Below, piece after piece: positions 28,651 to 49,991 of a DNA stretch of 64,000 nucleotides. The DNA comes from Actinomycetota bacterium (GTDB lineage: Bacteria; Actinomycetota; Humimicrobiia; Hakubellales; JAMDDV01): assembly GCA_023488455.1 (NCBI GenBank), contig JAMDDV010000014.1, positions 1 to 64,000 on the forward strand, read 5' to 3'. Made by a program: the position numbers and the translations under genes. Each line of letters opens with the position of its first letter. The first letter of the stretch is position 1. Below the pieces are notes generated by a model. It was not told the origin of the DNA. It worked only from the letters and a program-made list of their open reading frames with translations, and searched no databases.

Positions 28651-29724
28651 TCATAATCGGACAACTTGAACAAGATTACGTGGTCTATCAACATCCAATC
28701 CTTTCTTTATAGCACAGTAAAATGCAAAAAACTGTAAGAATGGCATTACAAGCACACAGCTGACTTCATCCGAAAGACCTGTTTTTAGAAAATATGAATA
28801 GTCAGGCTTAAAGTTACCAAGCTGTTCGACATCATCGCTGATCGTCATAATCTTCGCTCCAAGAGCCTTCATATCGCGCAGTACCGATACTTGATATTGT
28901 GGGTTATTTTTTGAAACTAGCCCGATGATAAGTGATGAATCGGTTACCATTGACATCGGACCATGTCTTAATTCCAGAAAGTGATAACTTTCAGAAAAAG
29001 TCAAAGACATCTCTTTTGCCTTAAGCATCCCCTCATTTGATATCCCATAAAATGGGCCATTGCCAAGATAAAAAAGTCTGTCAATTTCAATAGAATCAGA
29101 TATTTCAAGGGATAATTTAGAACTTTCATTAATCACTCTCTTAATTTCCTTAACAACAGCACCTATTTCACCAAATAAACTTTTGCTATTGCCAATATGT
29201 GCTGTGATCATCAATGCAATGATAAGCATTGTTGAAAAGGATTTCGTCATCACCACGCTTTCTTCCATACTGCTTTCCTCATATAAAATCAAATCAGCGA
29301 TCTCATTTATCGGAGGTAATGAACGACAGGATATTGCAACAACTTTTCCACCAACCTTATTTTTAAAAAATCTTGAGGCTTCAACCGTCTCGGATGTTGT
29401 TGCTGATCTCGATACTGTAATCAGTCTGTATTTATGGCTTTTCCGCAGGTAATTATCAGCAGATAGAAAGATTTCAGATGCAGGCACTGCATAAGATGGA
29501 TGACCTGTGATCTTATTAAAGGAGGCTGAGATGCACTGACTTAAGTAATATGATGAACCACAACCTGCAAAAACCGTTGTAATGCTTTCATTATCTTCAA
29601 ATGTCTCATATTTATTTTTATTGAAATTACAAAGAAAGTCTCTATATTTGTCAAACGCACTTTTTATAGATTCCTTCTGCCCAAAAATTTCATTATAAGT
29701 TGCAAATTTTTCATGTTTATTCAT
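28651..29724 (-). CDS. SIS-domain sugar-phosphate isomerase/deaminase (AgaS/FrlB-like)
   Basis: 357 residues with two SIS domains (about 40-190 and 215-345). Family blocks: VFAGCGSSYY, VSRSATTSET, KEMSLTFSESYHFLELRHGPMSM and the C-terminal GLDVDRPRNLVQVV. These match AgaS/GlmS-type proteins, including tagatose-6-phosphate isomerase/galactosamine-6-phosphate deaminase and the fructoselysine-6-phosphate deglycase FrlB. It probably isomerises, deaminates or deglycates the phosphorylated sugar made by the PfkB kinase two genes upstream. The ATG at 29724 overlaps the end of the UroD-family gene by 8 bases. Last gene of the leftward island operon. Confidence 0.82.
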   Translation of the reverse strand: MNKHEKFATYNEIFGQKESIKSAFDKYRDFLCNFNKNKYETFEDNESITTVFAGCGSSYYLSQCISASFNKITGHPSYAVPASEIFLSADNYLRKSHKYRLITVSRSATTSETVEASRFFKNKVGGKVVAISCRSLPPINEIADLILYEESSMEESVVMTKSFSTMLIIALMITAHIGNSKSLFGEIGAVVKEIKRVINESSKLSLEISDSIEIDRLFYLGNGPFYGISNEGMLKAKEMSLTFSESYHFLELRHGPMSMVTDSSLIIGLVSKNNPQYQVSVLRDMKALGAKIMTISDDVEQLGNFKPDYSYFLKTGLSDEVSCVLVMPFLQFFAFYCAIKKGLDVDRPRNLVQVVRL

Positions 29725-30790
29725 GTTTGTTCTTACTTCCAGCTCCACTAATTTTCATAAATTTCGTTCTCATTGTTTCAAAGTTCGCCATGGGACAGTC
29801 AGACGTGACTTCGTGAGAAGGAGAAACTATATATCCACCATTAATGCCAAGAGCTTTAACCTTTTCTCTAATCTCATTAATAACTTCTTCTCTAGTTCCA
29901 AAAGGGAGAACCCGCTGAGTCGATATCCCTCCAAAGAAGCTGACTTTATCAGAATACTCATCTGAAAGAACTTTAATATTCATTGCTTCAGGTTGAACAG
30001 GGTTAATGACATCAAGCCCAATCTCAATCAAATCATCCAGTATTTCCATAGTATTCCCACAGGAATGATGAAATATTTTTTTACCCTTAGATCTGTAAAA
30101 TCCCCATAGTTTTTCATATCTAGCCTTAAAATATTTTCGAAATATTGCAGGAGAAAATGCCAATGCAAGTTGATTTCCAAAATCATCACCAGTCCAAACA
30201 GCATCTATCTCATATTCAACTGCTTTTCGGGCTATCTCCATCTGAACACCCAAAATTCCATCAAGAAGATAGTTAACTTCTTTACTGTTTGTATAAAAAT
30301 ATATCATAAGTTCCTCGTATCCTAATAAAAGGTAGGCTCTTTCAAAGAGGGTCCAGCCATGGTCAAAAGCAATAAAATAGGAAAGTTTTTGTGCAGAATT
30401 AACGTTATCGGCAAATCCCGAAAATAACTCCTTGAAATTAAGTGATGGGAATTTATATGACCAAATCTCGTCAATTCCATTGATTGGTTTTTTTAAAGCA
30501 AGAAAACCCTCGCTTCTTTTTATATCCCAACCAACTCCCCATATATCATATGAAATGCCATTCTGCTCATCTACCAAGACCTTATCATTGCACAAAAGAT
30601 AAAACAGGTGGTTATGCAAAAATTCGCTTAAGGACAATTTTTCTTTAATGCCATAATATCTTTTCACTATTTCCTGCATAGATGAAGTCATATCAATCTG
30701 GGTTGGTAAAAAATCTACTTTTTGCCTATTAATTGCACTAAGCACCAACTGCTTTTTACTTGGAATATTGCTATCTGAAACTTTCTTCAT
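29717..30790 (-). CDS. UroD-family methyltransferase homologue, HxC...C type (copy d)
   Basis: 357 residues of the uroporphyrinogen decarboxylase fold. It keeps the zinc ligands of MtaA/MtbA-type cobalamin methyltransferases: His242-x-Cys244 in HHSCGN and Cys332 in SDCPM. The motif AVWTGDDFGNQ and NPVQPEAM mark the active-site barrel. Haem synthesis is unlikely given the context and this motif. I infer transfer of a methyl group from or to a corrinoid protein. Among the four UroD-family proteins here it is the only one with all three cysteine/histidine ligands. Situated between the PfkB kinase and SIS genes, overlapping the latter. Confidence 0.75.
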   Translation of the reverse strand: MKKVSDSNIPSKKQLVLSAINRQKVDFLPTQIDMTSSMQEIVKRYYGIKEKLSLSEFLHNHLFYLLCNDKVLVDEQNGISYDIWGVGWDIKRSEGFLALKKPINGIDEIWSYKFPSLNFKELFSGFADNVNSAQKLSYFIAFDHGWTLFERAYLLLGYEELMIYFYTNSKEVNYLLDGILGVQMEIARKAVEYEIDAVWTGDDFGNQLALAFSPAIFRKYFKARYEKLWGFYRSKGKKIFHHSCGNTMEILDDLIEIGLDVINPVQPEAMNIKVLSDEYSDKVSFFGGISTQRVLPFGTREEVINEIREKVKALGINGGYIVSPSHEVTSDCPMANFETMRTKFMKISGAGSKNKHE

Positions 30791-30810
30791 TTTTAATAAC
30801 TAACACACCA

Positions 30811-31773
30811 TTAATTATCAAACCTGTTTGTTTTTAGGTGATGTTTTTTTAAAAAATTCTTTAATTCCTTCAGGCCAGGTGAAGCTGTAGTTCCGCCTAT
30901 CTTGGTAGTAGAAATTGCTCCACAAGCATTGGCTATCTCCAGACACTTTCTGGCACCAAATCCATTTAGAAAGCCGTAAATAAATCCTGCATTGAAATTA
31001 TCTCCAGCGCCAGTGGTATCAATAGACTTAACTTTAAAAGCTCCAACCGAGATTAAACCATCTTTTGAATAAGATACTGCACCTTCTTCGCCGAGTTTAA
31101 CCACAACATTTTCACAATAATTTCCAAGAAATTTTACTGCCTCCTCAACACCTGTTTTTTTCTGAATACGTAGCGCTTCGATGTTATTTGGTAAAAAAAT
31201 ATCAACATTAGGCAGAACCTTTTTTAAATTCATCTCCCACATATTATCGGGATCAAATCCTGTATCCAGTGATGTGGTTAGACCACATTTTTTTGCGATT
31301 TCGAAAATATAAGGTATATCCTTTTTCAAACCTTTTAACAAAAAATAGGATGAAATATGCAGATGTTTAAAATTCAGAAAATAAGAGATATCAATATCAT
31401 TGATGTTTAGCTGGCTAATACTTCCCAAAAATGTCACAAAACTTCTATCCTCAGGCGTAGATAGTGATACCGTTATCCCGGTCCGAATCTCCCTATCAAC
31501 AATTATCTTACCTGTACCAACACCATTTTCTTCCAACCCTTTAATAGTAAAATCGCCAAAAAAATCAGCACCAACCCTACTGGCCATCTCAACTTTTATA
31601 CCTAACCTTGAGAGAGCAACTGCAAAAATTGCTGAAGAAGAACCAAGAGTTAAATTCAGATCTTTTGCAAGAGTTTCCTCTCCTGGTGCAGGAAATTTCC
31701 GAAGACCAGATAATATAAGATCGGGGTTAAGTTCACCAATTACATGCACTTTGGCATTTTCCATTAAACTCAT
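30811..31773 (-). CDS. PfkB-family carbohydrate kinase
   Basis: 320 residues of the ribokinase fold. Visible: the sugar-binding start VIGELNPDLIL, a glycine-rich loop LTLGSSSAIFA, and the ATP/anion-hole motif DTTGAGDNF (252-260) with catalytic Asp258. It should phosphorylate a ketose, ketose phosphate or sugar derivative; members include tagatose-6-phosphate kinase and fructoselysine kinase. The ATG at 31773 overlaps the MttB-family stop (ATGA); an ATG at 31764 behind GGATGAG is an equally good choice. The tight overlap ties the kinase to the methyltransferase homologue in expression. Confidence 0.85.
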   Translation of the reverse strand: MSLMENAKVHVIGELNPDLILSGLRKFPAPGEETLAKDLNLTLGSSSAIFAVALSRLGIKVEMASRVGADFFGDFTIKGLEENGVGTGKIIVDREIRTGITVSLSTPEDRSFVTFLGSISQLNINDIDISYFLNFKHLHISSYFLLKGLKKDIPYIFEIAKKCGLTTSLDTGFDPDNMWEMNLKKVLPNVDIFLPNNIEALRIQKKTGVEEAVKFLGNYCENVVVKLGEEGAVSYSKDGLISVGAFKVKSIDTTGAGDNFNAGFIYGFLNGFGARKCLEIANACGAISTTKIGGTTASPGLKELKNFLKKHHLKTNRFDN

Positions 31774-33188
31774 CCACATAGGTCTCTCATGGCTCGCTCA
31801 TATATCCTATCAAGCTGTCTTTTGATTTGGCTATCTACCTCATGTGAATGGTTTTTGATTCTTTCGAGTGCTATTTCTTTAGCAATCTTCGTAATTTTCT
31901 TTCCCCCATCTTCTTGCCACTGTCTCAATGTCGAATGCAGAAAAAGATTGGGGTCCCAGTATTTTCTAAAATCTTGATATGTAGAATCATGAGATAGAAA
32001 AGTGCTTGAATGGCCTACCTCCTGGATGATTTTTAATACAGATAAATCATCATCAAACTCATCCCCTTTAACTACCCTCTGACAATATTGAACAATCTCA
32101 TAATCAATAACAAGTTGTTCTGCGCTATAAATTTCATCTACTGACAATAAACCACCATTTGTAAATACATATGCACCTGCAAGTGCAGCTGCCAATGTAT
32201 GTGCAGATTTTTCTGCTGCAGCGTGGGCGTCAGGTAACTTCGATGTTGTCAATAATGATTTCGCCACTACTGGAATACCAAAATAGTTATTTAATTGAAC
32301 CTGGTAAAGTGTAGCCAGAAGATCCTCAGGTGATCCGTAAACAAAAGCACCGTACTTCATATCGAAGGGATATGACCTTATACTATCAATAACTGCGCAT
32401 TTTAACCTTCCTTTTAAAGGCTTAGTTTCGTTTATCAGACAGACTAAGGTTAGGGCTGAAAAAAGCTCACCAATACTTTGTATATATGAATCAATCATAT
32501 TAATTGGAGAAGTAGTCCCAGCTACTGGCATGGTTGCAACCCACATATCCACAGGCTCATTTCTGAATTCAAATAATAGCTCCAAATTTTCTTGTGTTGC
32601 TAGGAATGGACTAATTACCCACAACCCCAGACTGAATGGTTTATTTACTACTTCTGACATCTCTTTTATATACCTTGCTTTCTTAGGAGTGCTCATTGGG
32701 TTTGCATCAAATATACCACCTGGCCTCATGCTACTATATTCGTAAGAGATTTTGTAAAGAATGATTTCCTGCAATTCCTGTGGGATATCTTGTGGTTTTA
32801 CGGGTGCGGAACCGTAAATTCCATACGAGTCGCATAGCTTTGTGTAATCAACAAGATCCTGCAAATTAGCAGGTCTGATATTCTCATCTTTTAAATCTAT
32901 AACGTTTAATTCATAAGCGCCTGAGACCATACCAAACTTGTTAGGACCCAAATCTCGTGGCCAATCTGAATAATCCTGGCTTTTTAGTGCTCTTGAAACA
33001 AGTTCTTGGCTAAAATAGGCAATATCATCCTTAAGTTTAACTCCATCTATCTCACTAATCATATTTCTAATTCCGGAATGAGGAACTCTTAACCCAAATT
33101 TTTCAATTAGGGAAAGTGCCCCTTCCCACATTTTTTCTATATCCTTTGTTGAAAGCCCACCTTGGAGGCTAAACTTTATCTTTTCCAA
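31770..33188 (-). CDS. MttB-family methyltransferase homologue (island copy 2)
   Basis: 472 residues, related to trimethylamine:corrinoid methyltransferase MttB and its non-pyrrolysine relatives (MtgB, MtcB), but of a divergent subgroup. The frame is continuous, so no amber-encoded pyrrolysine is needed. It is clearly paralogous to the island copy at 38.9-40.3 kb; shared blocks include MWVATMP, a DSIR..FDM segment and SVDEIYS.E.LV.DYEIVQ. Presumably it moves a methyl group from a quaternary amine or methylated sugar to a corrinoid protein. The TTG at 33188 was chosen because GGGAGG lies 6 bases upstream; the frame extends to 33209 over the preceding stop. Confidence 0.72.
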   Translation of the reverse strand: MEKIKFSLQGGLSTKDIEKMWEGALSLIEKFGLRVPHSGIRNMISEIDGVKLKDDIAYFSQELVSRALKSQDYSDWPRDLGPNKFGMVSGAYELNVIDLKDENIRPANLQDLVDYTKLCDSYGIYGSAPVKPQDIPQELQEIILYKISYEYSSMRPGGIFDANPMSTPKKARYIKEMSEVVNKPFSLGLWVISPFLATQENLELLFEFRNEPVDMWVATMPVAGTTSPINMIDSYIQSIGELFSALTLVCLINETKPLKGRLKCAVIDSIRSYPFDMKYGAFVYGSPEDLLATLYQVQLNNYFGIPVVAKSLLTTSKLPDAHAAAEKSAHTLAAALAGAYVFTNGGLLSVDEIYSAEQLVIDYEIVQYCQRVVKGDEFDDDLSVLKIIQEVGHSSTFLSHDSTYQDFRKYWDPNLFLHSTLRQWQEDGGKKITKIAKEIALERIKNHSHEVDSQIKRQLDRIYERAMRDLCG

Positions 33189-33205
33189 TTTCTTCCTCCC
33201 ACTAA

Positions 33206-34258
33206 TCAAAAATTAATTGGATATCTACCAAATTTTTCGACTACTTTATAAAACCTTTGCAAATTTACGACTGCATTCTCTGAGGGCTGGACATTATGAG
33301 TTGAACCCAAAATTAACCCTCCCCCTGGTGCAATAGTCTTAAGCCTTAATAAGACCTCTCGTTCAACATCTTCGAGAGCTCCAAATGAGAGAGTGTGCTG
33401 TACATCAATCGTGCCCCAGATTGAAAGCTTATCTCCATATCTCTTTTTAATTTGAGCTGGATCCATGCAGTCTGGTTGGACTGGATTTAATATGTCAACA
33501 CCGATTTCAACAAGATCATCGATCAATGGCAGTATATAACCATCACTATGGAAAGCAACTTTTACTCCTGGCCTTCTCTTTTTAAATTTACTAATTAACT
33601 CAGCCCATCTTGGGTATAAAAACTCCTTCCACAAATCTGGCGATATTAAAAGACCGGTTTGCATACCAACATCGTCACCAGCATAGAGAATATCTACTCC
33701 TGCATCCAGAATTTTAAATCCAAGATTTAAGTTATATTTCATTATCAAATCCATTAAATATTGGGCTGCCTCCTTATTTAACGTCATATCCATTAAGAAA
33801 TTTTCCATTCCGCGCAAGTACCATGAGTTCTCAAATATTGAAATACTGCCACCAATGATTGCGAAATCTTTACCATATTTTTTGCAGACCGTTTTTAGTT
33901 CACTATAAAAAGGCTCCTCTTTAATATTAGGTAACCTGTAATCATATACATCTTCTATTTGCTTAATTGGAGGTTCATCCATCTCCATATAGCAACCGTA
34001 TTGGTGACTTATCTTCCTCCATCTAATTCCCCATCTGTCAATATATGAGTCCTTTGAAAAATCCATGTAAAACCCATTAAAAATTCCAAGCTCAACAAGC
34101 ATGCAATCATGTCCAAGCACAATATCAAGCTCAAATGCTTTTTCTTTATATATATTTGAAAGAGTACCCGATACTTCTGGCGTAAAAGTATTATATATGG
34201 GTACTCTATCTGGTTCTTTATGATCTAAAGAGATTAAAACCCTTTCTTTGCTATTCAT
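33206..34258 (-). CDS. UroD-family protein, HSDG type (copy c)
   Basis: 350 residues of the UroD fold. The position that holds HxC in zinc methyltransferases reads His237-Ser-Asp239-Gly, and no cysteine replaces the third ligand (STHNVQPSEN). The start KEPDRVPIYN and the end KFGRYPINF are typical of UroD-family proteins found in carbohydrate clusters. The function is unproven; a different metal site or methyl acceptor is possible. It lies between the transporter and MttB copy 2 genes, with the stop 17 bases from the latter's start. Confidence 0.72.
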   Translation of the reverse strand: MNSKERVLISLDHKEPDRVPIYNTFTPEVSGTLSNIYKEKAFELDIVLGHDCMLVELGIFNGFYMDFSKDSYIDRWGIRWRKISHQYGCYMEMDEPPIKQIEDVYDYRLPNIKEEPFYSELKTVCKKYGKDFAIIGGSISIFENSWYLRGMENFLMDMTLNKEAAQYLMDLIMKYNLNLGFKILDAGVDILYAGDDVGMQTGLLISPDLWKEFLYPRWAELISKFKKRRPGVKVAFHSDGYILPLIDDLVEIGVDILNPVQPDCMDPAQIKKRYGDKLSIWGTIDVQHTLSFGALEDVEREVLLRLKTIAPGGGLILGSTHNVQPSENAVVNLQRFYKVVEKFGRYPINF

Positions 34259-34282
34259 TTATTATTCATTTATATAATTTAA

Positions 34283-35185
34283 TTACTCACCCTTCAGTGA
34301 GCCAGCAACTAACCCCCTGATAAAAAACCTCTGCCCAAAAAGATATAGAAGTAACATTGGTAATGTGGCAGTGAATAATCCAGCCATCAAAACAGGTTGA
34401 TCTATCTTATATCTACCTCTAAAAACTGAGAGACCAACCATCAATGTCCTGAGCTCAGCTCGCTGAAGGAAGATAAGTGCTATTAATAATTCGTTCCAAA
34501 CCCAGAGCGCGTTTACGATTATGAGAGTAATAAGGGCCGGGGCACTAATCGGAAGTACAATTTTTGTAAATGCTTTAAATCTCGAACAACCATCTATCAT
34601 CGCTGACTCAACAATCGATTCTGGGATTGTTATGAAGAAATTTCTAAGAAGATATATCGAAAATGGTAGTAACAGTCCGGTATAAATTACGATAGCCCCA
34701 AAGTAAGTATTTACGAGCTTCATCTTTACCATTACCACAAATAGTGGGATTACCATTACAATTGGGGGTATCACCATCAATGAAATCACAAAATTAAATA
34801 TCTTTTCTTTCCCTATAAACCTTATCCTGCTGAATGCATACGCTGCAATTGCAGCGATCATTGTGCTTATTATTACTGAACCAACAGTCATTATTACTGA
34901 ATTCATAAACCAGATTAAAAAAGTCTTTCCCTCGAAGGCAGCCGTAAAGTTAGTCAAAATGAATTCTTTCGGAAGACCAATTTTATTTGTGACATAATCC
35001 ATCTTTGTCTTAAAGGAGGTCATTATCATGAAATAGATTGGATAGATTGTAATCAATACTGCGATTATCATTATCGAGTGTTTAAGCAAACTGGCAAAAA
35101 AATTCTTTACTCTAAGTATCAAATTTTCCTCTGATATATACTTATGTTTCGCGCCATTAAAATCTGTTTTATTCATATTCTGCAT
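34283..35185 (-). CDS. Sugar ABC transporter permease (MalG type)
   Basis: 300 residues, six predicted membrane segments, cytoplasmic N-terminal extension of about 35 residues. The ATPase-docking EAA loop reads ESAMIDGCSRFKAFTKIVLPIS. Forms a heterodimeric channel with the permease encoded just upstream, overlapping it by 17 bases. The start is uncertain among ATG 35185, ATG 35176 and a longer frame to 35239. CUT1 family (oligosaccharides or sugar derivatives). Confidence 0.9.
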   Translation of the reverse strand: MQNMNKTDFNGAKHKYISEENLILRVKNFFASLLKHSIMIIAVLITIYPIYFMIMTSFKTKMDYVTNKIGLPKEFILTNFTAAFEGKTFLIWFMNSVIMTVGSVIISTMIAAIAAYAFSRIRFIGKEKIFNFVISLMVIPPIVMVIPLFVVMVKMKLVNTYFGAIVIYTGLLLPFSIYLLRNFFITIPESIVESAMIDGCSRFKAFTKIVLPISAPALITLIIVNALWVWNELLIALIFLQRAELRTLMVGLSVFRGRYKIDQPVLMAGLFTATLPMLLLYLFGQRFFIRGLVAGSLKGE

Positions 35186-36059
35186 ATAATCTTTTTCTGA
35201 AATTATATGAAAGGAATGCAAGTATTGCTGTAATGGCAAATAATACTATTGCTACAGCAGCAGATATACCAATGTCATTTTGCCTGAATGCCTGAGTATA
35301 AATATAAAGTTCCGATATATAAGAGCTATATCCTGGGCCACCATTGGTCATTACATAGACATAATTGAATACCCAGCTAAGCATCGTTATTAAGCTTATA
35401 AAAATATAAAATTCAATAACCGTACTAAGTTGAGGTATAGTTATATACCAAAGTCTCTGAACCCATCCAGCACCATCGATTTTAGCAGCATCATACAACT
35501 CTTCAGAAACTGTCATTAATCTTGCCAAAAAAAGTACAACGCCAAACCCAAGCTCCCTCCAGATAATAACAAGCATTATTGTCGGTAGTGCCAGATGAGT
35601 CTTACCAAGCCAATCAAATACTAAAAAATCTAATTTTAATACTCTTAAAATGGTATTCAGTACACCGTTAAACTGAAAAAAGAAAGAAAAAAATATCCCA
35701 ACCACAGTAATAGAAAGAATGTAAGGCATAAACAAAAAAGTTCTATATACCTTCCATCCTTTTATTTTCTCATAAAGAAGAACCGAAAATATCAGTGAAA
35801 TAGCTACAAGCACAGGTACGATTAAAAACAGCAGTAAGTTATTTTTTAATGAAATAAAAAATACTTTATCATTTACCATACTAATATAATTTTTGAGGCC
35901 CACAAATGGTGCACCTTTTATGCTCAAATCTATAAAGCTAAACCTTAGATTTTGAAATATGGGGTAAAAATAGACCCAGATGATGAAAATTACAGCAGGT
36001 AATACATAAATATAGCCAAATATATTATCAATTTGTCTTGTGGTAACTTTTATTTTCAT
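35169..36059 (-). CDS. Sugar ABC transporter permease (MalF type)
   Basis: 296 residues with six membrane segments. The EAA loop reads YDAAKIDGAGWVQRLWYITIPQ. Pairs with the MalG-type permease and the binding protein gene located 89 bases upstream, from which it is separated by a terminator-like hairpin. No ABC ATPase gene accompanies them in this window. Confidence 0.92.
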   Translation of the reverse strand: MKIKVTTRQIDNIFGYIYVLPAVIFIIWVYFYPIFQNLRFSFIDLSIKGAPFVGLKNYISMVNDKVFFISLKNNLLLFLIVPVLVAISLIFSVLLYEKIKGWKVYRTFLFMPYILSITVVGIFFSFFFQFNGVLNTILRVLKLDFLVFDWLGKTHLALPTIMLVIIWRELGFGVVLFLARLMTVSEELYDAAKIDGAGWVQRLWYITIPQLSTVIEFYIFISLITMLSWVFNYVYVMTNGGPGYSSYISELYIYTQAFRQNDIGISAAVAIVLFAITAILAFLSYNFRKRLYAEYE

Positions 36060-36099
36060 CCAATACCCTAGATAATAAAACTATTCCAAAATATTATAA

Positions 36100-36140
36100 A
36101 AAATAAAAAAAGGGGGTCTGGAAAGTACCAGTTACCCCCC
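36100..36140 (-). terminator. Internal (attenuating) terminator after the binding-protein gene
   Basis: Read leftward, GGGGGT-AA-CTGG pairs with CCAG-ACCCCC around a 6-base loop, followed by TTTTTTTATTTTTT. It lies directly after the binding-protein stop and before the permease genes. Partial readthrough would give more binding protein than permease, a common arrangement in sugar ABC operons. Confidence 0.82.
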
Positions 36141-36148
36141 ATTCAAAA

Positions 36149-37552: not shown

Positions 37553-37666
37553 ATCACTCCCTCCTTTCCTTAACAAAATTCAATAAATATCAAACATTCA
37601 CCCCCTCTCTTGAAATAATCTTTGGTCAAAGTTTAAATAATTTATCAATACTTCTTTTGCTTTAAA

Positions 37667-38800: not shown

Positions 38801-38927
38801 CTTTTTAACCTCTTAGTTTTTTTCTCTTCCTTAATAAAATCTTTATAAAATTTAACCAATAGAAATATCTATTTCACCACCTCTTAAATAAATTTAGAAT
38901 GAAGATTCCAATAATTGCTCAATTGAT

Positions 38928-40337
38928 CTAGCTTCCAAATTCCTCAACTGCTTTTCTGAAAATTTTCTCAAGTTCTTTCTTTACATCTCTATCCATCTCA
39001 TAAGAATGCTCTTCTATTCGTTTCTTTGCTGCCTTTCTTAAGACATCTTTTAGCCTTGGGCTACCCAATTCCTTCCACTGCCCCAACATGGTTCTATCAA
39101 AAACATCCGGTATCCAGAATGCCTCTTTGTAATTATCAAGAGTACTATCGTGCGAAATAAAGGAGCCTCCGATTCCAACCTCTTTAATGATATCCAAAGA
39201 AAGATCTTTATCGCTAAACTCAAACCCTTCAACTATGTTCTTTACATGTTGCACAATTTCGTAATCAAGAACCAACTTTTCACCACTGTAAACCTCATCT
39301 ACTGAAAGAAAACCACCGCCGGTAAAAATTCTGGCGCCTGAGAGTGCTGCTGCAAGAGTATGCGATGCAAGCTCTACGCCAAGTTGAGCATCGGGAAATT
39401 TTGCTGAGGTCATAAGCGATTTGGCAACCAATGGTATTCCATACCTCTTGTTTAATTGAGCCTGGAAAATTGTGCCAATAATATCATCGGGTGTCCCATA
39501 CACAAAAGATGCATATCTCATATCAAAAGCATAAGCCCTGATAGAGTCAATTATCAGACAATGTGGGGTTTCATTACTTGTATTTATAAGACCTAACATA
39601 GTGAGACCAGCGAAGAGTTCAGCCATGCTCTGAACATAGGCACCCACCATGTAAACCGGGGCAGTGGCACCTGCAATCGGCATCGTTGCAACCCACATGG
39701 GAACTCCCTTATCCAAAAACCTGTAAATTATATCGAGCTCCCTGAAATCCGTTCTAAACGGGCTCTTTATCCAAAATCCAAGTGAAAAACGTTTGTCAGC
39801 AATCTTGGACATTTCGTAAACATACTCAGCAACCCTGACAGAAGATTTTTCATTAGCCTCAAATATACTATTTGAAATTCTTGGACCATTCTCCCAACAG
39901 AGTTTATACATTGTGACTTCTTGCAATTCTGTTGATTTAATATCCTGAGGTCTCACTGGTGAGGAGCCGTACATACCATATGAATCAGATAATTTCACCA
40001 TCTCAACGAGATCTTTTGTTGTCGAAGGCCTGATTTCCCCCGTTTCTAAATCTAGCACGTTCATCTCGTATGCGCCCTGATTTATCAAATAATCGGCATT
40101 TTTTACGTAATCTGGATATTGCATTTGCGAAATAGCCTTTTCAACAAGATCAGCAGAGAACATTACGTTTTCACCAGAAATATTAACCCCTGCAATTCCA
40201 GAAAGCTCCCTTAGAATTCCATCATGTTGAATATTAAGGCCGACATTTTCTACGACATCAAGCATCGCAGAGTGCATTTTTTCAATATCATCTGCAGTGA
40301 ACCCACCAGACAGCCAATATTTTCTGTTCTTATCCAT
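38928..40337 (-). CDS. MttB-family methyltransferase homologue (island copy 1)
   Basis: 469 residues, same divergent MttB subgroup as the copy at 31.8-33.2 kb, with matching segments over most of the length (for example SLGFWIKSPF, MWVATMPIAGAT, DSIRAYAFDM, ASHTLAAALSGA). No in-frame amber codon. An AGAGGGA precedes the ATG. Presumed corrinoid-dependent methyltransferase acting on a methylated substrate. Two such paralogues in one operon could act on different methylation states or positions of the substrate. Confidence 0.72.
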   Translation of the reverse strand: MDKNRKYWLSGGFTADDIEKMHSAMLDVVENVGLNIQHDGILRELSGIAGVNISGENVMFSADLVEKAISQMQYPDYVKNADYLINQGAYEMNVLDLETGEIRPSTTKDLVEMVKLSDSYGMYGSSPVRPQDIKSTELQEVTMYKLCWENGPRISNSIFEANEKSSVRVAEYVYEMSKIADKRFSLGFWIKSPFRTDFRELDIIYRFLDKGVPMWVATMPIAGATAPVYMVGAYVQSMAELFAGLTMLGLINTSNETPHCLIIDSIRAYAFDMRYASFVYGTPDDIIGTIFQAQLNKRYGIPLVAKSLMTSAKFPDAQLGVELASHTLAAALSGARIFTGGGFLSVDEVYSGEKLVLDYEIVQHVKNIVEGFEFSDKDLSLDIIKEVGIGGSFISHDSTLDNYKEAFWIPDVFDRTMLGQWKELGSPRLKDVLRKAAKKRIEEHSYEMDRDVKKELEKIFRKAVEEFGS

Positions 40338-40364
40338 CTTTTTCCCTCTTGATCAAAAATCTTT

Positions 40365-41726
40365 TCAGGAAACTGTAGGTTCTATATTAAGCACATCACA
40401 TATAGCCAATAGCTCATCTTTCAAATTGCCATATACCATATGGATATACTCACTCCTTAAATTCTGTATGAATTTTTCAATATCCCCATCTAATTTTATG
40501 AATGCATGTGGCCACATAGGATAACCACACTCATAGACCAACTTAGGATCAGCCTCAATGGCTTCACCGGTAACTATATGCATCTGGTAATATCCCATCA
40601 CTCTCTGAAATCTTGCTAAGGTTACCCTTCCTGGTTTGCAGATAAGGCCAGTGCAAACTCCACTTGCTTTAGCTTCAAGGGTAGGCTGAAAGTCAAGTTT
40701 TACGTCTTTTGGATTTTTAGCTAAATTTATGGACGCGGAACCATCATCTATGAGTCTTATGATTTTTTCTTTTTTCTGTATGAAGTTGACATCAGCCATA
40801 AATAATGGTTCTTTGGTTAGAAGCCTGAGCATATACATTGTTAGTGCACCATTTGAATCGTTAAGGCAGGCTGTGACATAACCACGCGAACTCAATCTAC
40901 TCTGCGCTAAGCACGCCGAGCAATAGTTATCACTTAAATCAAATGTGCACTTAACGCCAGTGAAATCGTATTTTTCCCGCTTTATTATCTCCTCAAGGCT
41001 CAAATAAAGCCTTATCGATCTTTCTGTAACATCATTTAATGGAGGAACCTGACCATACGCTGATTTCAAAAGATTGTGATACGCAGTAACCTTATCTCTT
41101 TCGATCTTTTCTGCTTCGACTACTACAGCGTATTGATCCGTAAAACTAACAAGTATTCCAAACTCTTCCATCCACTGATTAGCATCAATTATGCCCGTAT
41201 GAATGCCCATTCCCTGACCACCAATGGAACCATAAGTTGATTTGGAGAGAATGTTCTTTACATAGCATGCTTTTATATAGCTTTTAATTCTTTCTAGAAC
41301 ATCCTCTTCATCGACACTTCCATAAACCGTTAAATGTTTATATCCAACTTCATCAAATGACCCATGGGTTACTGCAAGGCCCCCAATATTCCAGGCCGGT
41401 GGTATGGGAATTGCCCATAATATGACAGGTTTCCCAATTTTTCTAACAGCTTGCATTATTTGCGCTGCCCAATTCCATGTAGCAATAAATATGATCACGC
41501 AGTCAACATCTTCCTTAATCATCAAATCTGCAGCTTCAAAAGAATCCTCTACTGAATCTACAATTTTATTAAATCGAACGACGTCAAAATCCATGTTTTC
41601 GATTGCATTATTAGCATTATCCACAGTTTCTTTATTTACCCAATCTATGCCTGTTTCAGTCTTAGCTTCAATATGTGTTGGACAAGTAACTGAAATGAAG
41701 CCAACTTTTGCTTTCTCTCTTTGCAT
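40365..41726 (-). CDS. L-fucose/L-arabinose isomerase-like protein
   Basis: 453 residues of the FucI/AraA-like group (COG2407 type). N-terminal Rossmann-like domains read VGFISVTCPTH and VDCVIIFIATWNW; the C-terminal half has GMGIHTGIIDANQW, CTFDLSDNYCSACLAQ and a beta-rich end with PHAFIKLDGD. The family interconverts aldoses and ketoses with Mn2+, but many members have no tested activity. AGGAGG lies 6 bases before the ATG. Its position among methyltransferase genes suggests action on the demethylated or partly methylated sugar. Confidence 0.75.
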   Translation of the reverse strand: MQREKAKVGFISVTCPTHIEAKTETGIDWVNKETVDNANNAIENMDFDVVRFNKIVDSVEDSFEAADLMIKEDVDCVIIFIATWNWAAQIMQAVRKIGKPVILWAIPIPPAWNIGGLAVTHGSFDEVGYKHLTVYGSVDEEDVLERIKSYIKACYVKNILSKSTYGSIGGQGMGIHTGIIDANQWMEEFGILVSFTDQYAVVVEAEKIERDKVTAYHNLLKSAYGQVPPLNDVTERSIRLYLSLEEIIKREKYDFTGVKCTFDLSDNYCSACLAQSRLSSRGYVTACLNDSNGALTMYMLRLLTKEPLFMADVNFIQKKEKIIRLIDDGSASINLAKNPKDVKLDFQPTLEAKASGVCTGLICKPGRVTLARFQRVMGYYQMHIVTGEAIEADPKLVYECGYPMWPHAFIKLDGDIEKFIQNLRSEYIHMVYGNLKDELLAICDVLNIEPTVS

Positions 41727-41830
41727 GGCTCCTCCTGATTATTGCTTTGAGTGTTCGTTTGTTAATATTATAATCAAAGTTAAAATAAAGTCAAACATTC
41801 AAAATTAAGCCATTATCTAGAAAATAACAT

Positions 41831-42982
41831 TTATCCAAAAATCATCTTTGAATACTTCATCGAAATAGAAAGTATCTCATTAAAGATCTTGCGATTTTCT
41901 TTCCTATCTTTGTTTTGAGTCGTAAAAGTTGCTATTGCTATAACATCAGGAGCAAGAACATCTACCATTTTAGAATATTCTGAAATTTGAAAATCAATCG
42001 GTTTGTCATACCACTCAATCATTAATATAGCTTTATATTCAGGGAAAATCTCCTTAATTCTCTTAAAGTCTTCTGAAGTATGGGTTCCATCAACATGAAG
42101 TGCCTTTATTGGAGGATTATGTTCAAAGTACTCTTTAAGCGAAGGATGGGGGCCACAATTGTGAAGAATGCCCATTCCATACTTTTGATAAATCCTATTA
42201 TTTGCAGGAACACTATATTTTAAAAATAGCTCTGGTGAAATTGTAGCGCTTAAATCATCACAGACCAGACATCTATATTCCTCTGGACACCAAATATGTA
42301 TAAATCCAGTTGTTGCCACTTTAGATATACCACCCGTTATATTAAGTTGAGCATCCAAGAAATCCATAAATGCATCAACCTGTACATCCAAAAGTCTTTT
42401 TACAGCATCGGGCATATCATAAAGCATCAAATAAAGTTCCGTGTTCTCTATTAAGTCTATGGCTGTATTAAATGGTCCATTTAACTCTAAAAGACATGTC
42501 TCAAACATCCCTTTGGTTTCTTTAATAAAAAGATCCAGCCTCTCTAATGCTTTTGGCATGAGACCATCACTTCTAGGGTCTATTCTTTTCAACTCAAATA
42601 TATCTTCTGGCTTTTTTATTATATGATCCACTACTCTTGGATACTGACCTTCAATATTGCTGTACTTCCATTTTGATCCCCATCCACTTTGCAATATTAC
42701 ACATCCCATTTCAGGTCTAAGCGTAGGTATAAAAGATTCAGGACCTGCCTCCAAACCTAATTTAATTCGCTCGATGTTATACAAAAGATCAGCTTCATGA
42801 CGTTCAAAACGATCATTCAATGTAATTTCTGTTGGATAAGGGAGCACATTAAGAGTAAATGGAATAAAATCCACTTTTTGGTAGTTCCAAACCCTTTTAA
42901 TTCGTTCTTTATTTTCATCATTTACATTTTCAGAAAATATTGGGACGTCAATGACATTTCTTTTATAAGACGCTAATCTCAT
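41831..42982 (-). CDS. UroD-family methyltransferase homologue, HxC type (copy b)
   Basis: 383 residues, the most divergent of the four UroD-family proteins. It has His274-x-Cys276 in LHNCGPHP, as in zinc-dependent cobalamin methyltransferases, but no later cysteine for the third ligand. A Cys-rich stretch (WCPEEYRCLVCDD, residues 231-243) precedes it and may contribute instead. A role in methyl transfer with a corrinoid protein is inferred. Second gene of the leftward operon. Confidence 0.68.
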   Translation of the reverse strand: MRLASYKRNVIDVPIFSENVNDENKERIKRVWNYQKVDFIPFTLNVLPYPTEITLNDRFERHEADLLYNIERIKLGLEAGPESFIPTLRPEMGCVILQSGWGSKWKYSNIEGQYPRVVDHIIKKPEDIFELKRIDPRSDGLMPKALERLDLFIKETKGMFETCLLELNGPFNTAIDLIENTELYLMLYDMPDAVKRLLDVQVDAFMDFLDAQLNITGGISKVATTGFIHIWCPEEYRCLVCDDLSATISPELFLKYSVPANNRIYQKYGMGILHNCGPHPSLKEYFEHNPPIKALHVDGTHTSEDFKRIKEIFPEYKAILMIEWYDKPIDFQISEYSKMVDVLAPDVIAIATFTTQNKDRKENRKIFNEILSISMKYSKMIFG

Positions 42983-43003
42983 TATCCATGTCCAAAATTA
43001 ATA

Positions 43004-44077
43004 TTACTCCCAATTCAGTGGATATCTTCCATATTTTCTGATTGCGTCATAAAATGTGCGAACATTTTCAAGTGGAACTCCTTCATGCATTTCTGTGCTA
43101 GTTCCAAGAAACAAACCGGAGTACTTCCCTATCTCCTTTATAATTTTGCGGACCTCATTTTCAATTTGTTCCGGTGTTCCAAACGGCAACAGTTCAGAAA
43201 CATCCACTCCGCCAAATAACAAGAGCTTAGGATATCTATGTCTTAAATCAATAAGATTCATTCCAGCAGCAACCTCAATTGGGTTTAATCCGTCAATATT
43301 CAGTTCATTGACAAGATCGTCAAGAATTAGATCAAGATTACCATCACTATGATACATGACCTTAATTCCATGTTTTTTTAAGGGTTCAATAATATATTTG
43401 GTTCTTGGTATGAATTCCTTTCTTAAAAAATCCAATGAGAATATCAAAGAAGTTTTGTAAGCAATATCATCACCAATAAAGAATATGAGCCCAAGCTCAT
43501 TTTCTGCATAAGCCTTTGCCACTGTGAAAGCCCAATCGGCAAAAAGATCTAACAGGTAACTAACAATATCGGGAGCATCGAATATGGCTTCACAAAAAAG
43601 CTGTAGGTCTGAATACATAAATGCGTTAGTAACACATCCCTCAACGGCTCCAATATACATTACCTCTGGAGCAAATGCATCCCTTACTTTCCTAAAACCC
43701 TTAACGTAGTTCTTATAAAGTTGATCCTTGTTAAAGGATCTTGGTAGATTCTTTTTTAAACCTTTTATATCGTTAAATGGCCTCTTTGAAATCCAATATG
43801 TCCCAGATGAAGCTTCAACGCCCCATTTATTTTTGTCCACGCCCATATAGTGGTCCCACTCATTAATTATGGCCTGAACCCAATTCTCATCAAAATCAAC
43901 ATGAAACCTAGTCATATCTATTCCAAATTCTTTGTAGGTATTTACAGCCCTACAAAGCTGATTGCCCCTGCCACCATAAAGCTCATATAGCAATGGGTTG
44001 TTGAGAAGATCATATATCGGAATCCTATCGGGTTCTTTAAATTCCAAAGTGGTTGTAATTCTATCGAAAGTATTCAT
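43004..44077 (-). CDS. UroD-family protein, HSDG type (copy a)
   Basis: 357 residues. Begins KEPDRIPIYDLL and ends RKYGRYPLNWE, the same frame as copy c. The metal-site position reads His243-Ser-Asp245-Gly, without cysteines. A GAVEGCVTNAF segment lines the barrel. Function unproven; see the HSDG/HxC comparison in the findings. First gene of the leftward island operon, divergent from the ROK regulator gene. Confidence 0.72.
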   Translation of the reverse strand: MNTFDRITTTLEFKEPDRIPIYDLLNNPLLYELYGGRGNQLCRAVNTYKEFGIDMTRFHVDFDENWVQAIINEWDHYMGVDKNKWGVEASSGTYWISKRPFNDIKGLKKNLPRSFNKDQLYKNYVKGFRKVRDAFAPEVMYIGAVEGCVTNAFMYSDLQLFCEAIFDAPDIVSYLLDLFADWAFTVAKAYAENELGLIFFIGDDIAYKTSLIFSLDFLRKEFIPRTKYIIEPLKKHGIKVMYHSDGNLDLILDDLVNELNIDGLNPIEVAAGMNLIDLRHRYPKLLLFGGVDVSELLPFGTPEQIENEVRKIIKEIGKYSGLFLGTSTEMHEGVPLENVRTFYDAIRKYGRYPLNWE

Positions 44078-44173
44078 ATTATTTTAATTACTGGTTGAAA
44101 ACTAATTTAAAATTGAAAAATTATTAAAATGATTGTAATATTAACTAACAAAGAAATCAATATATACATAATG

Positions 44174-44187
44174 ATATTTGAAAATAT
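44174..44187. promoter_or_regulatory. Candidate operator in the ROK-UroD divergent region
   Basis: A perfect inverted repeat, ATATTT-GA-AAATAT, lies in the 149-base AT-rich space between the two divergent genes, 40 bases before the ROK start. It is a plausible site for the ROK protein but could be chance in such AT-rich sequence. Confidence 0.35.
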
Positions 44188-44226
44188 TGATATAAAATTT
44201 ATAAAACTAAAGAGAAAGTGCTAATT

Positions 44227-45444
44227 ATGGCTATAAAATCACATACCCCGCAAAGTTTGATGAAAAAAAGAAATCTACAAATATTGCTTGAGTCTATTCG
44301 AAACAATGTGCCAATATCACGTGCAGATCTTGAAAAAGTGACCGGTCTGGCAAGACCCACAATATCAGCATTAGTTTCCGAGTTAATCTCAGCAGATTTA
44401 GTTACAGAAATAGGATATGGCAATTCAAGGGGTGGAAAGAAACCGATCCTGTTAGAGTTCAACAAAGATTTTGGTTTTATCACAGCTCTTGATTTAGGAG
44501 CTGTTAAATACATTGCAGCCCTTCTTGACTTAAACGGCAATATCTTGGATGAAAAGAGAGTTGACCTTGAAAACGAACTGTGGGCTAAAGAAATTCTCGA
44601 TAGCGCCATGTCAACTTTAAAAAAAATGATATCTGATTATGGACTTTCTGATAAAAGATTGATCGGGATCGGGGTTGCATCACCTGGCGCAATAAACCCA
44701 AACACCGGAGCAATCTCCATTGCCCCAAACATAAAAGGATTGGATGAAATAGATGTAAGAGGAACAGTCAAAAAAAGCTTTGATGCTCCTGTATTCATAG
44801 ACAGTTCATTTAAACTTGCCGCTCTTGGCGAGAAAAGTCAGGAGTACGCAAAAAATTCCAAAGTTCTGATGTATGTGGATTATGGTATTGGAATTGGACT
44901 TGGGATCATTATAGATAATAAAATTTTCAGAGGTGCAACGTACGCCGGGGGTGAAATTGGATACTTATATATACCAGGGGAACCTGACCCCGTAGACATG
45001 GCTGATCCCAAGAAATTTGGTTACTTTGAGAATACGACATCTGGATTGGCTTATGCAAAATTAGCACAAGAGAAAATCAAGACAGGAATAAAATCCATTA
45101 TGCTAGATGAAGTTGAAGGAAATCTCAAAAAAATTTCAGCAAAAACGGTATTTGATTGCGCAAAAAAGGGCGATCTGCTTGCTAATGAGATTATTGATCA
45201 AATATTACCACGATTTGCAATTGGAATTGCAAATGCAGTTATCTTATTCAACCCGGACCTTTTAATTATTGGCGGTGGAATATCAAGAGCAGGAGAGATC
45301 CTATTAGAACCATTAAAAAAAGAAATTTCAAAACTTGTGCCCATTACACCACAAATAATGATAACAAAAATTGAAGATAGAGCACCTCTTATCGGTGCAT
45401 GGGATATTGTAAACAGAAATATAGATCTGATATCTTTTGTTTAA
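44227..45444 (+). CDS. ROK-family transcriptional regulator
   Basis: 405 residues: an N-terminal winged helix (about 10-70, SRADLEKVTGLARPTISALVSE), then a sugar-kinase-like ROK domain with ALDLGAVK and IGVASPGAIN. ROK repressors usually sense a sugar or sugar phosphate. The zinc-binding cluster normally following GGEIGH (C-x-C-G-x2-G-C) is absent: here GGEIGYLYIPGEP continues without cysteines. The ATG at 44227 was preferred to GTG at 44218 because GAGAAAG lies 8 bases before it. Divergent from the 13-gene island operon, which it probably controls. Confidence 0.85.
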   Translation: MAIKSHTPQSLMKKRNLQILLESIRNNVPISRADLEKVTGLARPTISALVSELISADLVTEIGYGNSRGGKKPILLEFNKDFGFITALDLGAVKYIAALLDLNGNILDEKRVDLENELWAKEILDSAMSTLKKMISDYGLSDKRLIGIGVASPGAINPNTGAISIAPNIKGLDEIDVRGTVKKSFDAPVFIDSSFKLAALGEKSQEYAKNSKVLMYVDYGIGIGLGIIIDNKIFRGATYAGGEIGYLYIPGEPDPVDMADPKKFGYFENTTSGLAYAKLAQEKIKTGIKSIMLDEVEGNLKKISAKTVFDCAKKGDLLANEIIDQILPRFAIGIANAVILFNPDLLIIGGGISRAGEILLEPLKKEISKLVPITPQIMITKIEDRAPLIGAWDIVNRNIDLISFV

Positions 45445-45521
45445 AATCCTAAATTGCTAATTAATATTAGACACTTTAACCCATCCTCTAGAATTAACAA
45501 GGTCTGGAGGACTGCGGAATT

Positions 45522-46805
45522 TTATAATGATTGAATTTTTTTATTTAAATTTATCAAATTAAATGCTCTGAAGTACTTGTCCATACTTTCTTCTATTTTT
45601 AATAATACCCAATTTTCAGCATCTATGCCTTCTAATTCTAAATTTTTGTAAAGTTGGGTCTGCGCACATATCACTTTGGGATTTGCCCATACATAGCGGC
45701 TGGAGGTTTTAAGAAGCCACTCTTTTCTATCACTGCTGAGTGAATCAAAATCGTTTTCTCCAGGTAAAAGCCATTTTCGCCACCTGTTTGAGTCCAGCAC
45801 CTCTTGAGTAAGAATCTTTTTGAAGTTCGATCTACATGCAATTCTATTATTTTCATACAGTTTTTCTTCAATCTGCCAGAGCTCTAATAATGCATCGTAT
45901 TCGTATATGGTAAATTCTGGTCCTACATTTGCTGCACCCATTCCGCTTTTAGGGTAATCTTCAGGATTGGAAACAAAGTCGGTATAATGGCCTTTAATAT
46001 ATGAGCCATAATCTTTTGCGATATCTACTATTATTTCTGCAGTTGGCGAGTCAAATGTAGTGGTGTGGAGATCGGTTCCCACCTTTCCCACAATAAATAT
46101 TGGCCAGATATAGCCCAACTGTTTATCTGTCAATTTATCTTTTAAGAGTGCCGGGAGTCTCTTAAATACGCTGATATCAGCCAGACCACCGTGAACTTCT
46201 TCTGTCCCAATCTCATACGATATCGGTTTTATTTTTTTATTATTTCGAAAATTCTCAACATGTGCTATTAACTCGACTGTCCTTTCAACAACCGTTTCTA
46301 TCTTTATATTCTTCTCATAAATATCAACGGTCGCATCGATGTGCAGCAGATCATAACCTGCCAAAAGTGCGGCTTCAAATGACCTCTTAGCCCATTCCAT
46401 ACAACGATCGAGCTTCCATCTCTCTATTGTCTGAAGATCCTTTACCCAAGGGCCTCCATGATCGACTGCAACTATTATTGGTCCCTCATAACCAATTCTG
46501 TATGACTCTTCCTTTATCTTTCTTATGAGGTCATCTTGGGTCCAGCCTGTATAGCCGCCGTCTATATCAACTTGATTTAGTGTTGCAGCAAACTTTATGG
46601 GTGCATCTGCTCTTTTTGCAGCACGCAGAGCTGCTTTAAGCACGTTAAGAGAATTTGGACATACTGCAAAAAGTGTATGGCTAAAACCTTCTTTTTTAGA
46701 AATTTCCTGGATTTTGCTTAAAAGGTAATCTAGTATGGGTATGCCCATACCTCCGGATTTTCTTCTTATCTGGCTATTATCAATACTTTGTCCTATTTCC
46801 ATCAT
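45522..46805 (-). CDS. GatZ/KbaZ-like tagatose-bisphosphate aldolase subunit family protein
   Basis: 427 residues of the class II D-tagatose-bisphosphate aldolase Z-subunit family. Visible: GIPILDYLLSKIQE start, NQVDIDGGYTGWT, VAVDHGGPWVKD and HIDATVD. In E. coli the Z subunit supports the catalytic KbaY/GatY subunit, but no Y-type gene is present here, and many island-type relatives stand alone. It could cleave a ketose bisphosphate made by the SIS and PfkB enzymes. It is convergent with the ROK gene and has its own leader of about 135 bases. Confidence 0.78.
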   Translation of the reverse strand: MMEIGQSIDNSQIRRKSGGMGIPILDYLLSKIQEISKKEGFSHTLFAVCPNSLNVLKAALRAAKRADAPIKFAATLNQVDIDGGYTGWTQDDLIRKIKEESYRIGYEGPIIVAVDHGGPWVKDLQTIERWKLDRCMEWAKRSFEAALLAGYDLLHIDATVDIYEKNIKIETVVERTVELIAHVENFRNNKKIKPISYEIGTEEVHGGLADISVFKRLPALLKDKLTDKQLGYIWPIFIVGKVGTDLHTTTFDSPTAEIIVDIAKDYGSYIKGHYTDFVSNPEDYPKSGMGAANVGPEFTIYEYDALLELWQIEEKLYENNRIACRSNFKKILTQEVLDSNRWRKWLLPGENDFDSLSSDRKEWLLKTSSRYVWANPKVICAQTQLYKNLELEGIDAENWVLLKIEESMDKYFRAFNLINLNKKIQSL

Positions 46806-49981: not shown

Positions 49982-49991
49982 GGGAGACAAA

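What the first reader, a model, noticed from the sequence alone, without database searches (positions are those of the whole stretch)
28651..46805. Candidate corrinoid-dependent catabolic island for a methylated sugar or amino sugar
Seen: a leftward operon with two MttB-family and four UroD-family genes interleaved, with overlapping starts and stops, with a CUT1 sugar transporter, PfkB kinase, SIS isomerase/deaminase, fucose-isomerase-like protein and M24 peptidase; a divergent ROK regulator and a GatZ/KbaZ-like aldolase gene lie alongside. Known: MttB relatives demethylate quaternary amines via corrinoid proteins, some UroD-family proteins transfer methyl groups to or from corrinoids, and AgaS-like, PfkB and KbaZ enzymes form galactosamine/tagatose routes. 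Inference: the cell imports an N- or O-methylated sugar (for example a trimethylated amino sugar or its glycoside), strips methyl groups and degrades the sugar. I know of no described pathway with this gene set.
Basis: partly seen in the sequence, partly recalled or inferred. Interest (0 to 1): 0.85.

Follow-up and report, generated by a model that had tools for sequence, protein, structure and literature searches.

The report
Methylated-sugar demethylation operon in bacterium
A 13-gene bacterial operon combines sugar uptake and sugar-breaking enzymes with two odd relatives of vitamin-B12-dependent demethylases, suggesting a still untested way for oxygen-free microbes to eat sugars that carry methyl groups.

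Summary
A tightly packed 13-gene leftward operon (28651-44077) encodes two MttB-family and four UroD-family proteins, a CUT1 importer, PfkB kinase, SIS phosphosugar enzyme, fucose-isomerase-like protein and M24 peptidase; a ROK regulator diverges from it and a KbaZ-like gene lies beyond. No corrinoid-protein gene is in the operon; the only one that BLAST found in the window (49334-49981) is paired with its own ordinary MttB.
New here: both operon MttBs belong to a rare MttB clade with an altered active-site signature (D264, R267, K306-S307, D347-E348) absent from solved MttB and MtgB. The clade and its sister group lie near sugar or UroD genes in 11 of 19 loci, against 1 of 19 for ordinary MttBs (9 of 19 with window-derived queries only). 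Three of four UroD proteins lack the His-Cys-Cys zinc site of thiol methyltransferases; the fourth is unresolved.
Most likely: import and breakdown of a methylated (amino)sugar with corrinoid-dependent demethylation. The substrate is undetermined, and the missing corrinoid partner is the main weakness. Known enzyme families in a combination I found in no paper searched: a new variant of a known kind.

The parts
43004..44077 (-). UroD1, UroD-superfamily protein, metal residues H243, D245, T328 by alignment
   Evidence: Pfam PF01208 71 bits; A3-profile alignment
41831..42982 (-). UroD2, divergent UroD-superfamily protein with an HNCG motif
   Evidence: Pfam PF01208 48 bits; motif; not alignable to the UroD3 profile over the metal site
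40365..41726 (-). FucIL, fucose-isomerase-like protein (SftI-like), probable aldose-ketose isomerase
   Evidence: Pfam PF02952 49.5 bits; NCBIfam SftI 101 bits, below its cut-off of 700
38928..40337 (-). MttB1, MttB superfamily, signature clade
37667..38800 (-). M24 metallopeptidase-family protein (PepQ/creatinase type)
   Evidence: Pfam PF00557 208 bits; NCBIfam PepQ_Arch 234.5 bits, below its cut-off of 630
36149..37576 (-). CUT1 solute-binding lipoprotein
   Evidence: Pfam PF01547 88 bits; PDB relatives include sugar and oligosaccharide binders
35169..36059 (-). CUT1 permease (MalF/UgpA type)
   Evidence: Pfam PF00528 32 bits, NCBIfam
34283..35239 (-). CUT1 permease (MalG/UgpE type); no ATPase gene in the operon
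   Evidence: Pfam PF00528 58 bits, NCBIfam
33206..34258 (-). UroD3, UroD-superfamily protein with predicted H237-D239-H321 metal site
   Evidence: Pfam 94 bits; 120-row alignment; profile alignment to MtbA 4ay7; model pLDDT 95.7
31770..33209 (-). MttB2, MttB superfamily, same signature clade as MttB1
   Evidence: Pfam PF06253 145 bits; tree and signature
30811..31779 (-). PfkB-family sugar kinase
   Evidence: Pfam PF00294 170 bits
29717..30790 (-). UroD4, UroD-superfamily protein with predicted H242-C244-H326 metal site
   Evidence: Pfam 70 bits
28651..29748 (-). SIS protein, GlmD/GlmS-isomerase-like phosphosugar deaminase or isomerase
   Evidence: Pfam PF01380 73 bits; NCBIfam; PDB alignments
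44218..45444 (+). ROK-family regulator (NagC-like), divergent from the operon
   Evidence: Pfam PF00480 159 bits; NCBIfam NagC 145 bits, below cut-off
45522..46805 (-). KbaZ/GatZ-like protein with the GatZ zinc ligands kept; probable sugar-phosphate C4 epimerase; separate transcription unit
   Evidence: Pfam PF08013 107 bits; alignment to 2fiq
49334..49981 (+). Corrinoid protein (MttC/MtgC type): possible but unproven methyl acceptor for the operon
   Evidence: TIGR02370 192.5 bits (cut-off 215.3); Pfam B12-binding domains
49971..51443 (+). MttB3, ordinary MttB without the signature; likely cognate of the corrinoid protein
   Evidence: signature absent

Best explanation
An operon for uptake and catabolism of a methylated sugar, probably an amino sugar or a glycoside of one. 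A CUT1 importer brings it in; PfkB phosphorylates it; MttB1/MttB2 (probably at a quaternary nitrogen) and the UroD-type proteins (probably at oxygen, using a metal) pass methyl groups to a corrinoid protein encoded outside the operon; the demethylated sugar phosphate goes through the SIS deaminase/isomerase, the fucose-isomerase-like enzyme and the KbaZ-like C4 epimerase toward glycolysis. Shown: gene content and packing, family membership, altered MttB active-site residues, recurrence with sugar genes. Inferred: methylated substrate, corrinoid partner, order of steps. A chemical reason for MttB before SIS (inference): a quaternary ammonium cannot form the iminium that sugar-phosphate deaminases need, a tertiary amine can, so one demethylation would unlock deamination.
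For: Thirteen packed same-strand genes. Both operon MttBs in a 48-row clade (SH-aLRT 97; some rows near-duplicates) with D264/R267/K306-S307/D347-E348 in most rows; 88 of 118 listed relatives of MttB1 with all six columns filled have exactly D-R-K-S-D-E. K306, S307 and M309 align to A331, G332 and Pyl334 of MttB, and D347 to Gly372, a corrinoid contact (PMC9842639, passages). Sugar/UroD genes near 11 of 19 loci of the clade plus its sister group versus 1 of 19 ordinary-MttB loci from seven of the same genomes, Fisher p 0.0011. Recurring neighbours: UroD, PfkB, MttB in an Armatimonadota genome; uridine-kinase-like, UroD, MttB in an Anaerolineae genome; MttB, BadF-type kinase, SBP in a Halanaerobiaceae genome; MttB, UroD, DUF4432, FGGY in another Anaerolineae genome. 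Sister-group MttBs with CUT1 permeases and GH4 glycosidases in 4 of 5 loci. UroD3 family (120 listed of 6,284 hits): H237 in 120, D239 in 98 (C in 22), H321 in 118. Precedent: MthB acts on kinase-made phosphocholine but not choline (PMC12155760, passages). Members of the clade lie near corrinoid proteins in 3 of 14 loci. RACo in 13 of 13 carrier genomes.
Against: No corrinoid-protein gene in the operon or found in the 9 loci that keep R267 and D347; the 3 adjacent cases are all in a Spirochaetota subclade that lost both. The neighbour contrast weakens when only window-derived queries are counted: 9 of 19 against 1 of 19, p 0.0078; for the clade without its sister group 5 of 14, p 0.06. Within the clade, sugar neighbours in 6 of 9 signature-keeping against 1 of 5 signature-losing loci is not significant (p 0.27). 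RACo is common anyway: 93 of 120 (class of an Anaerolineae genome), 86 of 121 Armatimonadota, 28 of 120 Spirochaetota. The full gene set was found in no other genome; loci are few, not independent (14 clade loci from 9 genomes), some on short contigs. The SIS protein has Gln where GlmS and PH0510 have a C-terminal Lys. The O-type reading of the UroD metal site rests on alignment and on a rule from one preprint.
Confidence: 0.43

Rival explanations
1. A sugar operon in which the MttB-like and UroD-like TIM barrels were recruited to non-methyl chemistry (for example epimerase, isomerase or lyase steps) and no corrinoid is used.
For: No corrinoid-protein gene in the operon or found near any of 9 loci that keep R267 and D347, against 7 of 19 ordinary-MttB loci; active-site positions replaced by charged residues; His-Cys-Cys not kept in UroD1, UroD3, UroD4.
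Against: Full-length MttB fold kept in the MttB1 model; a subclade of the same clade lies near corrinoid proteins; corrinoid proteins serving several methyltransferases have precedent (MtqC in E. limosum, PMC12155760; MtgC in Ruegeria, PMC12478193, passages).
Confidence: 0.28
2. A route for a sugar conjugate of an ordinary quaternary amine or betaine: sugar and methylamine parts are separated first, and the MttBs demethylate the small amine.
For: Non-pyrrolysine MttBs with known substrates act on quaternary amines bearing a carboxylate or phosphate (PMC12155760, passages); the operon's M24 protein is of PepQ/creatinase type; in one Spirochaetota genome related MttBs lie near M24 proteins (L048 96.5 bits; L047 22.0 bits, just under the cut-off of 23) and in L047 near a transporter that looks peptide-type by eye.
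Against: No glycoside hydrolase among the 13 operon proteins; the signature residues differ from MtgB and 4yyc.
Confidence: 0.13
3. Two unrelated functions that happen to be neighbours: a sugar operon and stray methyltransferase paralogues.
For: No other genome with the whole set was found; apart from the window, the listed FucIL and MttB1 relatives share no longest-contig length.
Against: MttB2 overlaps the UroD3 and PfkB genes at the called starts; 3 of the 10 lengths typed for the closest UroD3 relatives (6780, 17664, 12460) recur in the MttB1 list; PfkB, MttB and UroD are neighbours in another phylum.
Confidence: 0.1

Closest known systems
MttB superfamily quaternary-amine methyltransferases (MttB, MtgB, MtpB, MtcB, MtyB, MthB)
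   Different: Separate clade with K-S and D-E where MttB, MtgB and 4yyc have A-G/G-G/G-G and G-M/F-M/G-L; sits with sugar genes, without a corrinoid gene. MtpB, MtcB, MtyB and MthB sequences were not compared
UroD-superfamily corrinoid methyltransferases (MtaA/MtbA, OdmB/VdmB/MtvB, CdmB)
   Different: No His-Cys-Cys in three of four; His-Asp-His in UroD3, His-Cys-His in UroD4; CdmB only a weak profile hit (E 0.077)
Choline to phosphocholine route of Eubacterium limosum (MthK-MthB-MthC-MthA)
   Same: Kinase gene next to an MttB-family gene; phosphate may anchor the substrate
   Different: No corrinoid-protein or pterin-binding gene in the operon; sugar kinase instead of choline kinase
Aga/Gat/Kba amino-sugar and tagatose pathways
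   Same: SIS, PfkB and KbaZ families
   Different: SIS nearer GlmD/GlmS than AgaS; KbaZ-like protein likely a C4 epimerase (PMC11907403); no catalytic class II aldolase family among the 30 window proteins scanned with Pfam
Sulfoquinovose isomerase SftI
   Same: Best NCBIfam model for the fucose-isomerase-like protein (101 bits)
   Different: Far below the model's cut-off of 700

Membership tests
MttB superfamily (PF06253) | Pfam score above gathering cut-off | tested here: met
   MttB1 206, MttB2 145 bits, cut-off 25
MttB superfamily (PF06253) | MttB fold over the full length | tested here: met
MttB superfamily (PF06253) | Corrinoid protein partner encoded in the operon | tested here: not met
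   None among the 13 operon proteins (BLAST); some known members use a shared partner
MttB superfamily (PF06253) | Methyl transfer from a quaternary amine to Co(I) | not testable with these tools
   needs purified proteins
Trimethylamine methyltransferase (TIGR02369) | NCBIfam equivalog cut-off 525 bits | tested here: not met
   MttB1 226, MttB2 177 bits
UroD-superfamily S-methyltransferases (MtaA type) | His-Cys-Cys zinc site | tested here: not met
   UroD1 H-D-T, UroD3 H-D-H, UroD4 H-C-H. UroD2: HNCG, third ligand not placed by the profile, Ile in the coarser alignment, so open
UroD-superfamily O-demethylases | Cys ligands replaced by carboxylate or non-coordinating residue | tested here: inconclusive
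   Fits UroD1 and UroD3 by the rule in PMC10418091; no aromatic O-demethylase sequence was compared directly
AgaS | NCBIfam TIGR02815 cut-off 529 bits | tested here: not met
   90.8 bits
GlmD deaminase | NCBIfam NF041128 cut-off 580 bits | tested here: not met
   150.5 bits, best of the 9 models listed
GatZ/KbaZ C4 epimerases | Zinc site of GatZ: Asp87, His88, Glu171, His257 | tested here: met
   Asp-His, Glu (IGTE) and His (H-x-T-D) align to 2fiq; residue list from PMC11907403 passages, itself a model
GatZ/KbaZ C4 epimerases | NCBIfam agaZ_gatZ cut-off 568.8 bits | tested here: not met
   86 bits
Sulfoquinovose isomerase SftI | NCBIfam NF048012 cut-off 700 bits | tested here: not met
   101.1 bits

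The most novel reading that the evidence does not exclude
The K-S/D-E MttB clade, together with metal-dependent UroD partners, is a family of carbohydrate demethylases: corrinoid-dependent enzymes that take methyl groups off sugars or sugar phosphates, so that anaerobes feed on methylated sugars and gain both a sugar and a C1 unit.
Probability: 0.33. Interest if true: 0.85.

Novelty: new variant of a known kind. Interest (0 to 1): 0.62.

Why it matters
The function of non-pyrrolysine MttB relatives is called an open question, with six members of the superfamily having an identified substrate (PMC12155760, passages). If this clade works on sugars, it would give an oxygen-free route for removing methyl groups from carbohydrates, link sugar catabolism to C1 metabolism in sediment bacteria, and give a testable substrate class for a rare MttB subfamily. 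The signature residues and the kinase next door make specific predictions.

Tried and rejected
FrlB/fructoselysine (Amadori) reading of SIS + PfkB: FrlB model only 24.8 bits against 150.5 for GlmD; set aside. DMSP-lyase (DddP) reading of the M24 protein: 40.6 bits against a cut-off of 600, PepQ 234.5; set aside.

RACo as evidence: 13 of 13 carriers, 1 of 14 control genomes looked strong until base rates of 93/120, 28/120 and 86/121 were measured (these samples include some carriers); only the three Spirochaetota carriers stand out.

First alignment of UroD metal residues put the third ligand of UroD3 at a Gly; the profile alignment puts it at H321, and I use the latter.

Neighbour control: 7 of the 21 queries came from loci outside the window (L003, L008 twice, L047, L053, L055, L063), which favours the test loci; with window-derived queries alone the contrast is 9 of 19 against 1 of 19.

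Shared operator between KbaZ and operon promoters: none found; a 19-base AT-rich near-palindrome at 44122-44140 is no more than a candidate.

Genome-contig scan with the fucose-isomerase-like protein alone: none of 64 stretches; with A1: 9 of 40. Viral-contig scan with A1: none of 157 stretches. Plasmids, tblastn with FucIL: 7 of 72,556 records, all under 60% identity. I had no handle to a genome of the window's own lineage, so neighbourhoods there were not seen. FucIL-type loci: UroD genes within about 9 kb in 4 of 18 (L060, L063, L064, L065), no matched control. FucIL catalytic residues were not tested. OdmB and MtoB are absent from the rows shown for UroD3, which says nothing either way.

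Papers: searches listed no report that I recognised of this gene set or of corrinoid demethylation of sugars; I saw titles and starts of abstracts, and passages of six papers. Only the open library was searched.
Full report
WHAT IS THERE. Window 28651-44077 holds thirteen leftward genes with gaps between -71 and +127 bases at the called starts: UroD1, UroD2, FucIL, MttB1, M24, SBP, two permeases, UroD3, MttB2, PfkB, UroD4, SIS. All match their Pfam families above the curated cut-off. A ROK regulator (44218-45444, +) diverges from it. A KbaZ/GatZ-like gene (45522-46805, -) lies beyond, convergent to the ROK gene and so outside the operon. The island is 36.5% GC, the rest of the window 43.4%, which fits an acquired island but is no proof. 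FucIL relatives carry the name Candidatus Humimicrobiaceae in 3 of the 120 listed rows, so an uncultured actinobacterial lineage is my guess.

WHAT IS MISSING. None of the 15 proteins from SIS to KbaZ has a B12-binding, RACo or pterin-binding domain by Pfam. Thirty window proteins were scanned with Pfam in all, not every ORF; BLAST of three corrinoid proteins against all window ORFs of 60 residues or more finds one convincing hit, 49334-49981. That gene overlaps its own MttB (49971-51443), on the + strand.

RARITY. At E <= 1e-90 the A1 profile is found in 3 of 296 genomes of the Spirochaetota phylum, 5 of 298 of the class of an Anaerolineae genome, 3 of 251 of the phylum of an Armatimonadota genome and 1 of 149 of the phylum of a Halanaerobiaceae genome. 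The counts include the seed genomes and sister-group or outlying members.

NEIGHBOURHOODS. Fourteen loci of the clade (9 genomes) and five of its sister group (4 genomes) were compared with 19 ordinary-MttB loci that I picked from the weaker matches in seven of the same genomes. Genes for UroD, CUT1 permease, fucose-isomerase-like protein, SIS, KbaZ, sugar kinase, DUF4432 or GH4 were seen by BLAST in 7 of 14, 4 of 5 and 1 of 19. Fisher p is 0.0011 for 11/19 against 1/19 and 0.0049 for 7/14 against 1/19. Some loci come from one genome, some contigs are short, and 7 of 21 queries were taken from such loci; counting window-derived queries only gives 9/19 (p 0.0078) and 5/14 (p 0.06). Corrinoid genes lie near 3 of 14, 0 of 5 and 7 of 19. 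The three are in a Spirochaetota subclade that lost R267 and D347 (5 loci); the nine loci that keep both have none (p 0.027). Sugar neighbours in 6 of these nine against 1 of the five is not significant (p 0.27). Best single cases: UroD, PfkB and MttB side by side in an Armatimonadota genome (L059); uridine-kinase-like, UroD and MttB in an Anaerolineae genome (L005); MttB, ABC ATPase, three UroD, DUF4432 and FGGY (L008); MttB, BadF-type kinase and SBP (L003, L006); CUT1 permeases, GH4 and sister-group MttB (L053-L056). UroD3 and MttB1 orthologues share exact contig lengths in three cases, an indirect sign that they travel together; FucIL and MttB1 lists share none apart from the window, which counts against a fixed set, though many contigs are short. 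FucIL relatives at about 27-36% identity lie with SIS and PfkB (L069, L060), with UroD (L060, L063-L065) or with a CUT1 importer whose permeases are 49-52% identical to the window's (L070).

SUGAR ENZYMES. The SIS protein keeps E-x-x-x-K-x-x-E and the His of the HGP motif, aligned to catalytic segments of GlmS (residue roles recalled), but has Gln where GlmS and PH0510 have a C-terminal Lys. The KbaZ-like protein keeps the Asp-His, Glu and His of the GatZ zinc site; GatZ and KbaZ are reported as fructose-6-phosphate C4 epimerases in E. coli (PMC11907403, abstract and passages). The 42 PDB relatives of the SBP include chitin-oligosaccharide, maltose- and other sugar-binding proteins, and UgpB lower down.

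MECHANISM. I favour import, phosphorylation, demethylation to a corrinoid protein encoded elsewhere, then deamination or isomerisation and epimerisation. MthB in E. limosum demethylates phosphocholine but not choline, and three other MttB enzymes of that species share one corrinoid protein, MtqC (PMC12155760, passages); in Ruegeria one corrinoid protein serves two pathways (PMC12478193, passages). These fit a kinase beside MttB and no dedicated corrinoid gene. Whether N- or O-methyl groups are removed cannot be told. RACo in 13 of 13 carriers is weak support given base rates of 93/120, 28/120 and 86/121.

VERDICT. The enzyme families are known; the clade, its signature and its pairing with sugar genes I found in no paper of the searches listed.

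Noticed in passing
49334-51443: A separate canonical corrinoid protein and MttB pair on the + strand, just beyond the island; likely an ordinary quaternary-amine demethylase.
   Followed up: partly
46942-48854: Flavoprotein (ODP-type beta-lactamase fold) and flavin reductase-rubredoxin fusion next to the island; probably oxygen or NO defence.
   Followed up: no
28651-46805: Island GC 36.5% against 43.4% for the rest of the window, suggesting acquisition.
   Followed up: partly
L047 638-5481; L050 8997-11228: A Spirochaetota subclade of the same MttB clade lost R267 and D347 and sits near corrinoid proteins and, in L047, an M24-like protein: a natural contrast for assays.
   Followed up: partly
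L053-L056: Sister-group MttB genes in genomes of the Anaerolineae class near CUT1 permeases and two or three GH4 glycosidase genes; function unknown.
   Followed up: partly
L063, L064, L008, L070: DUF4432-type proteins (Pfam-tested in L008 only, others by eye) recur beside UroD-family and/or fucose-isomerase-like genes, perhaps marking a wider sugar module.
   Followed up: no
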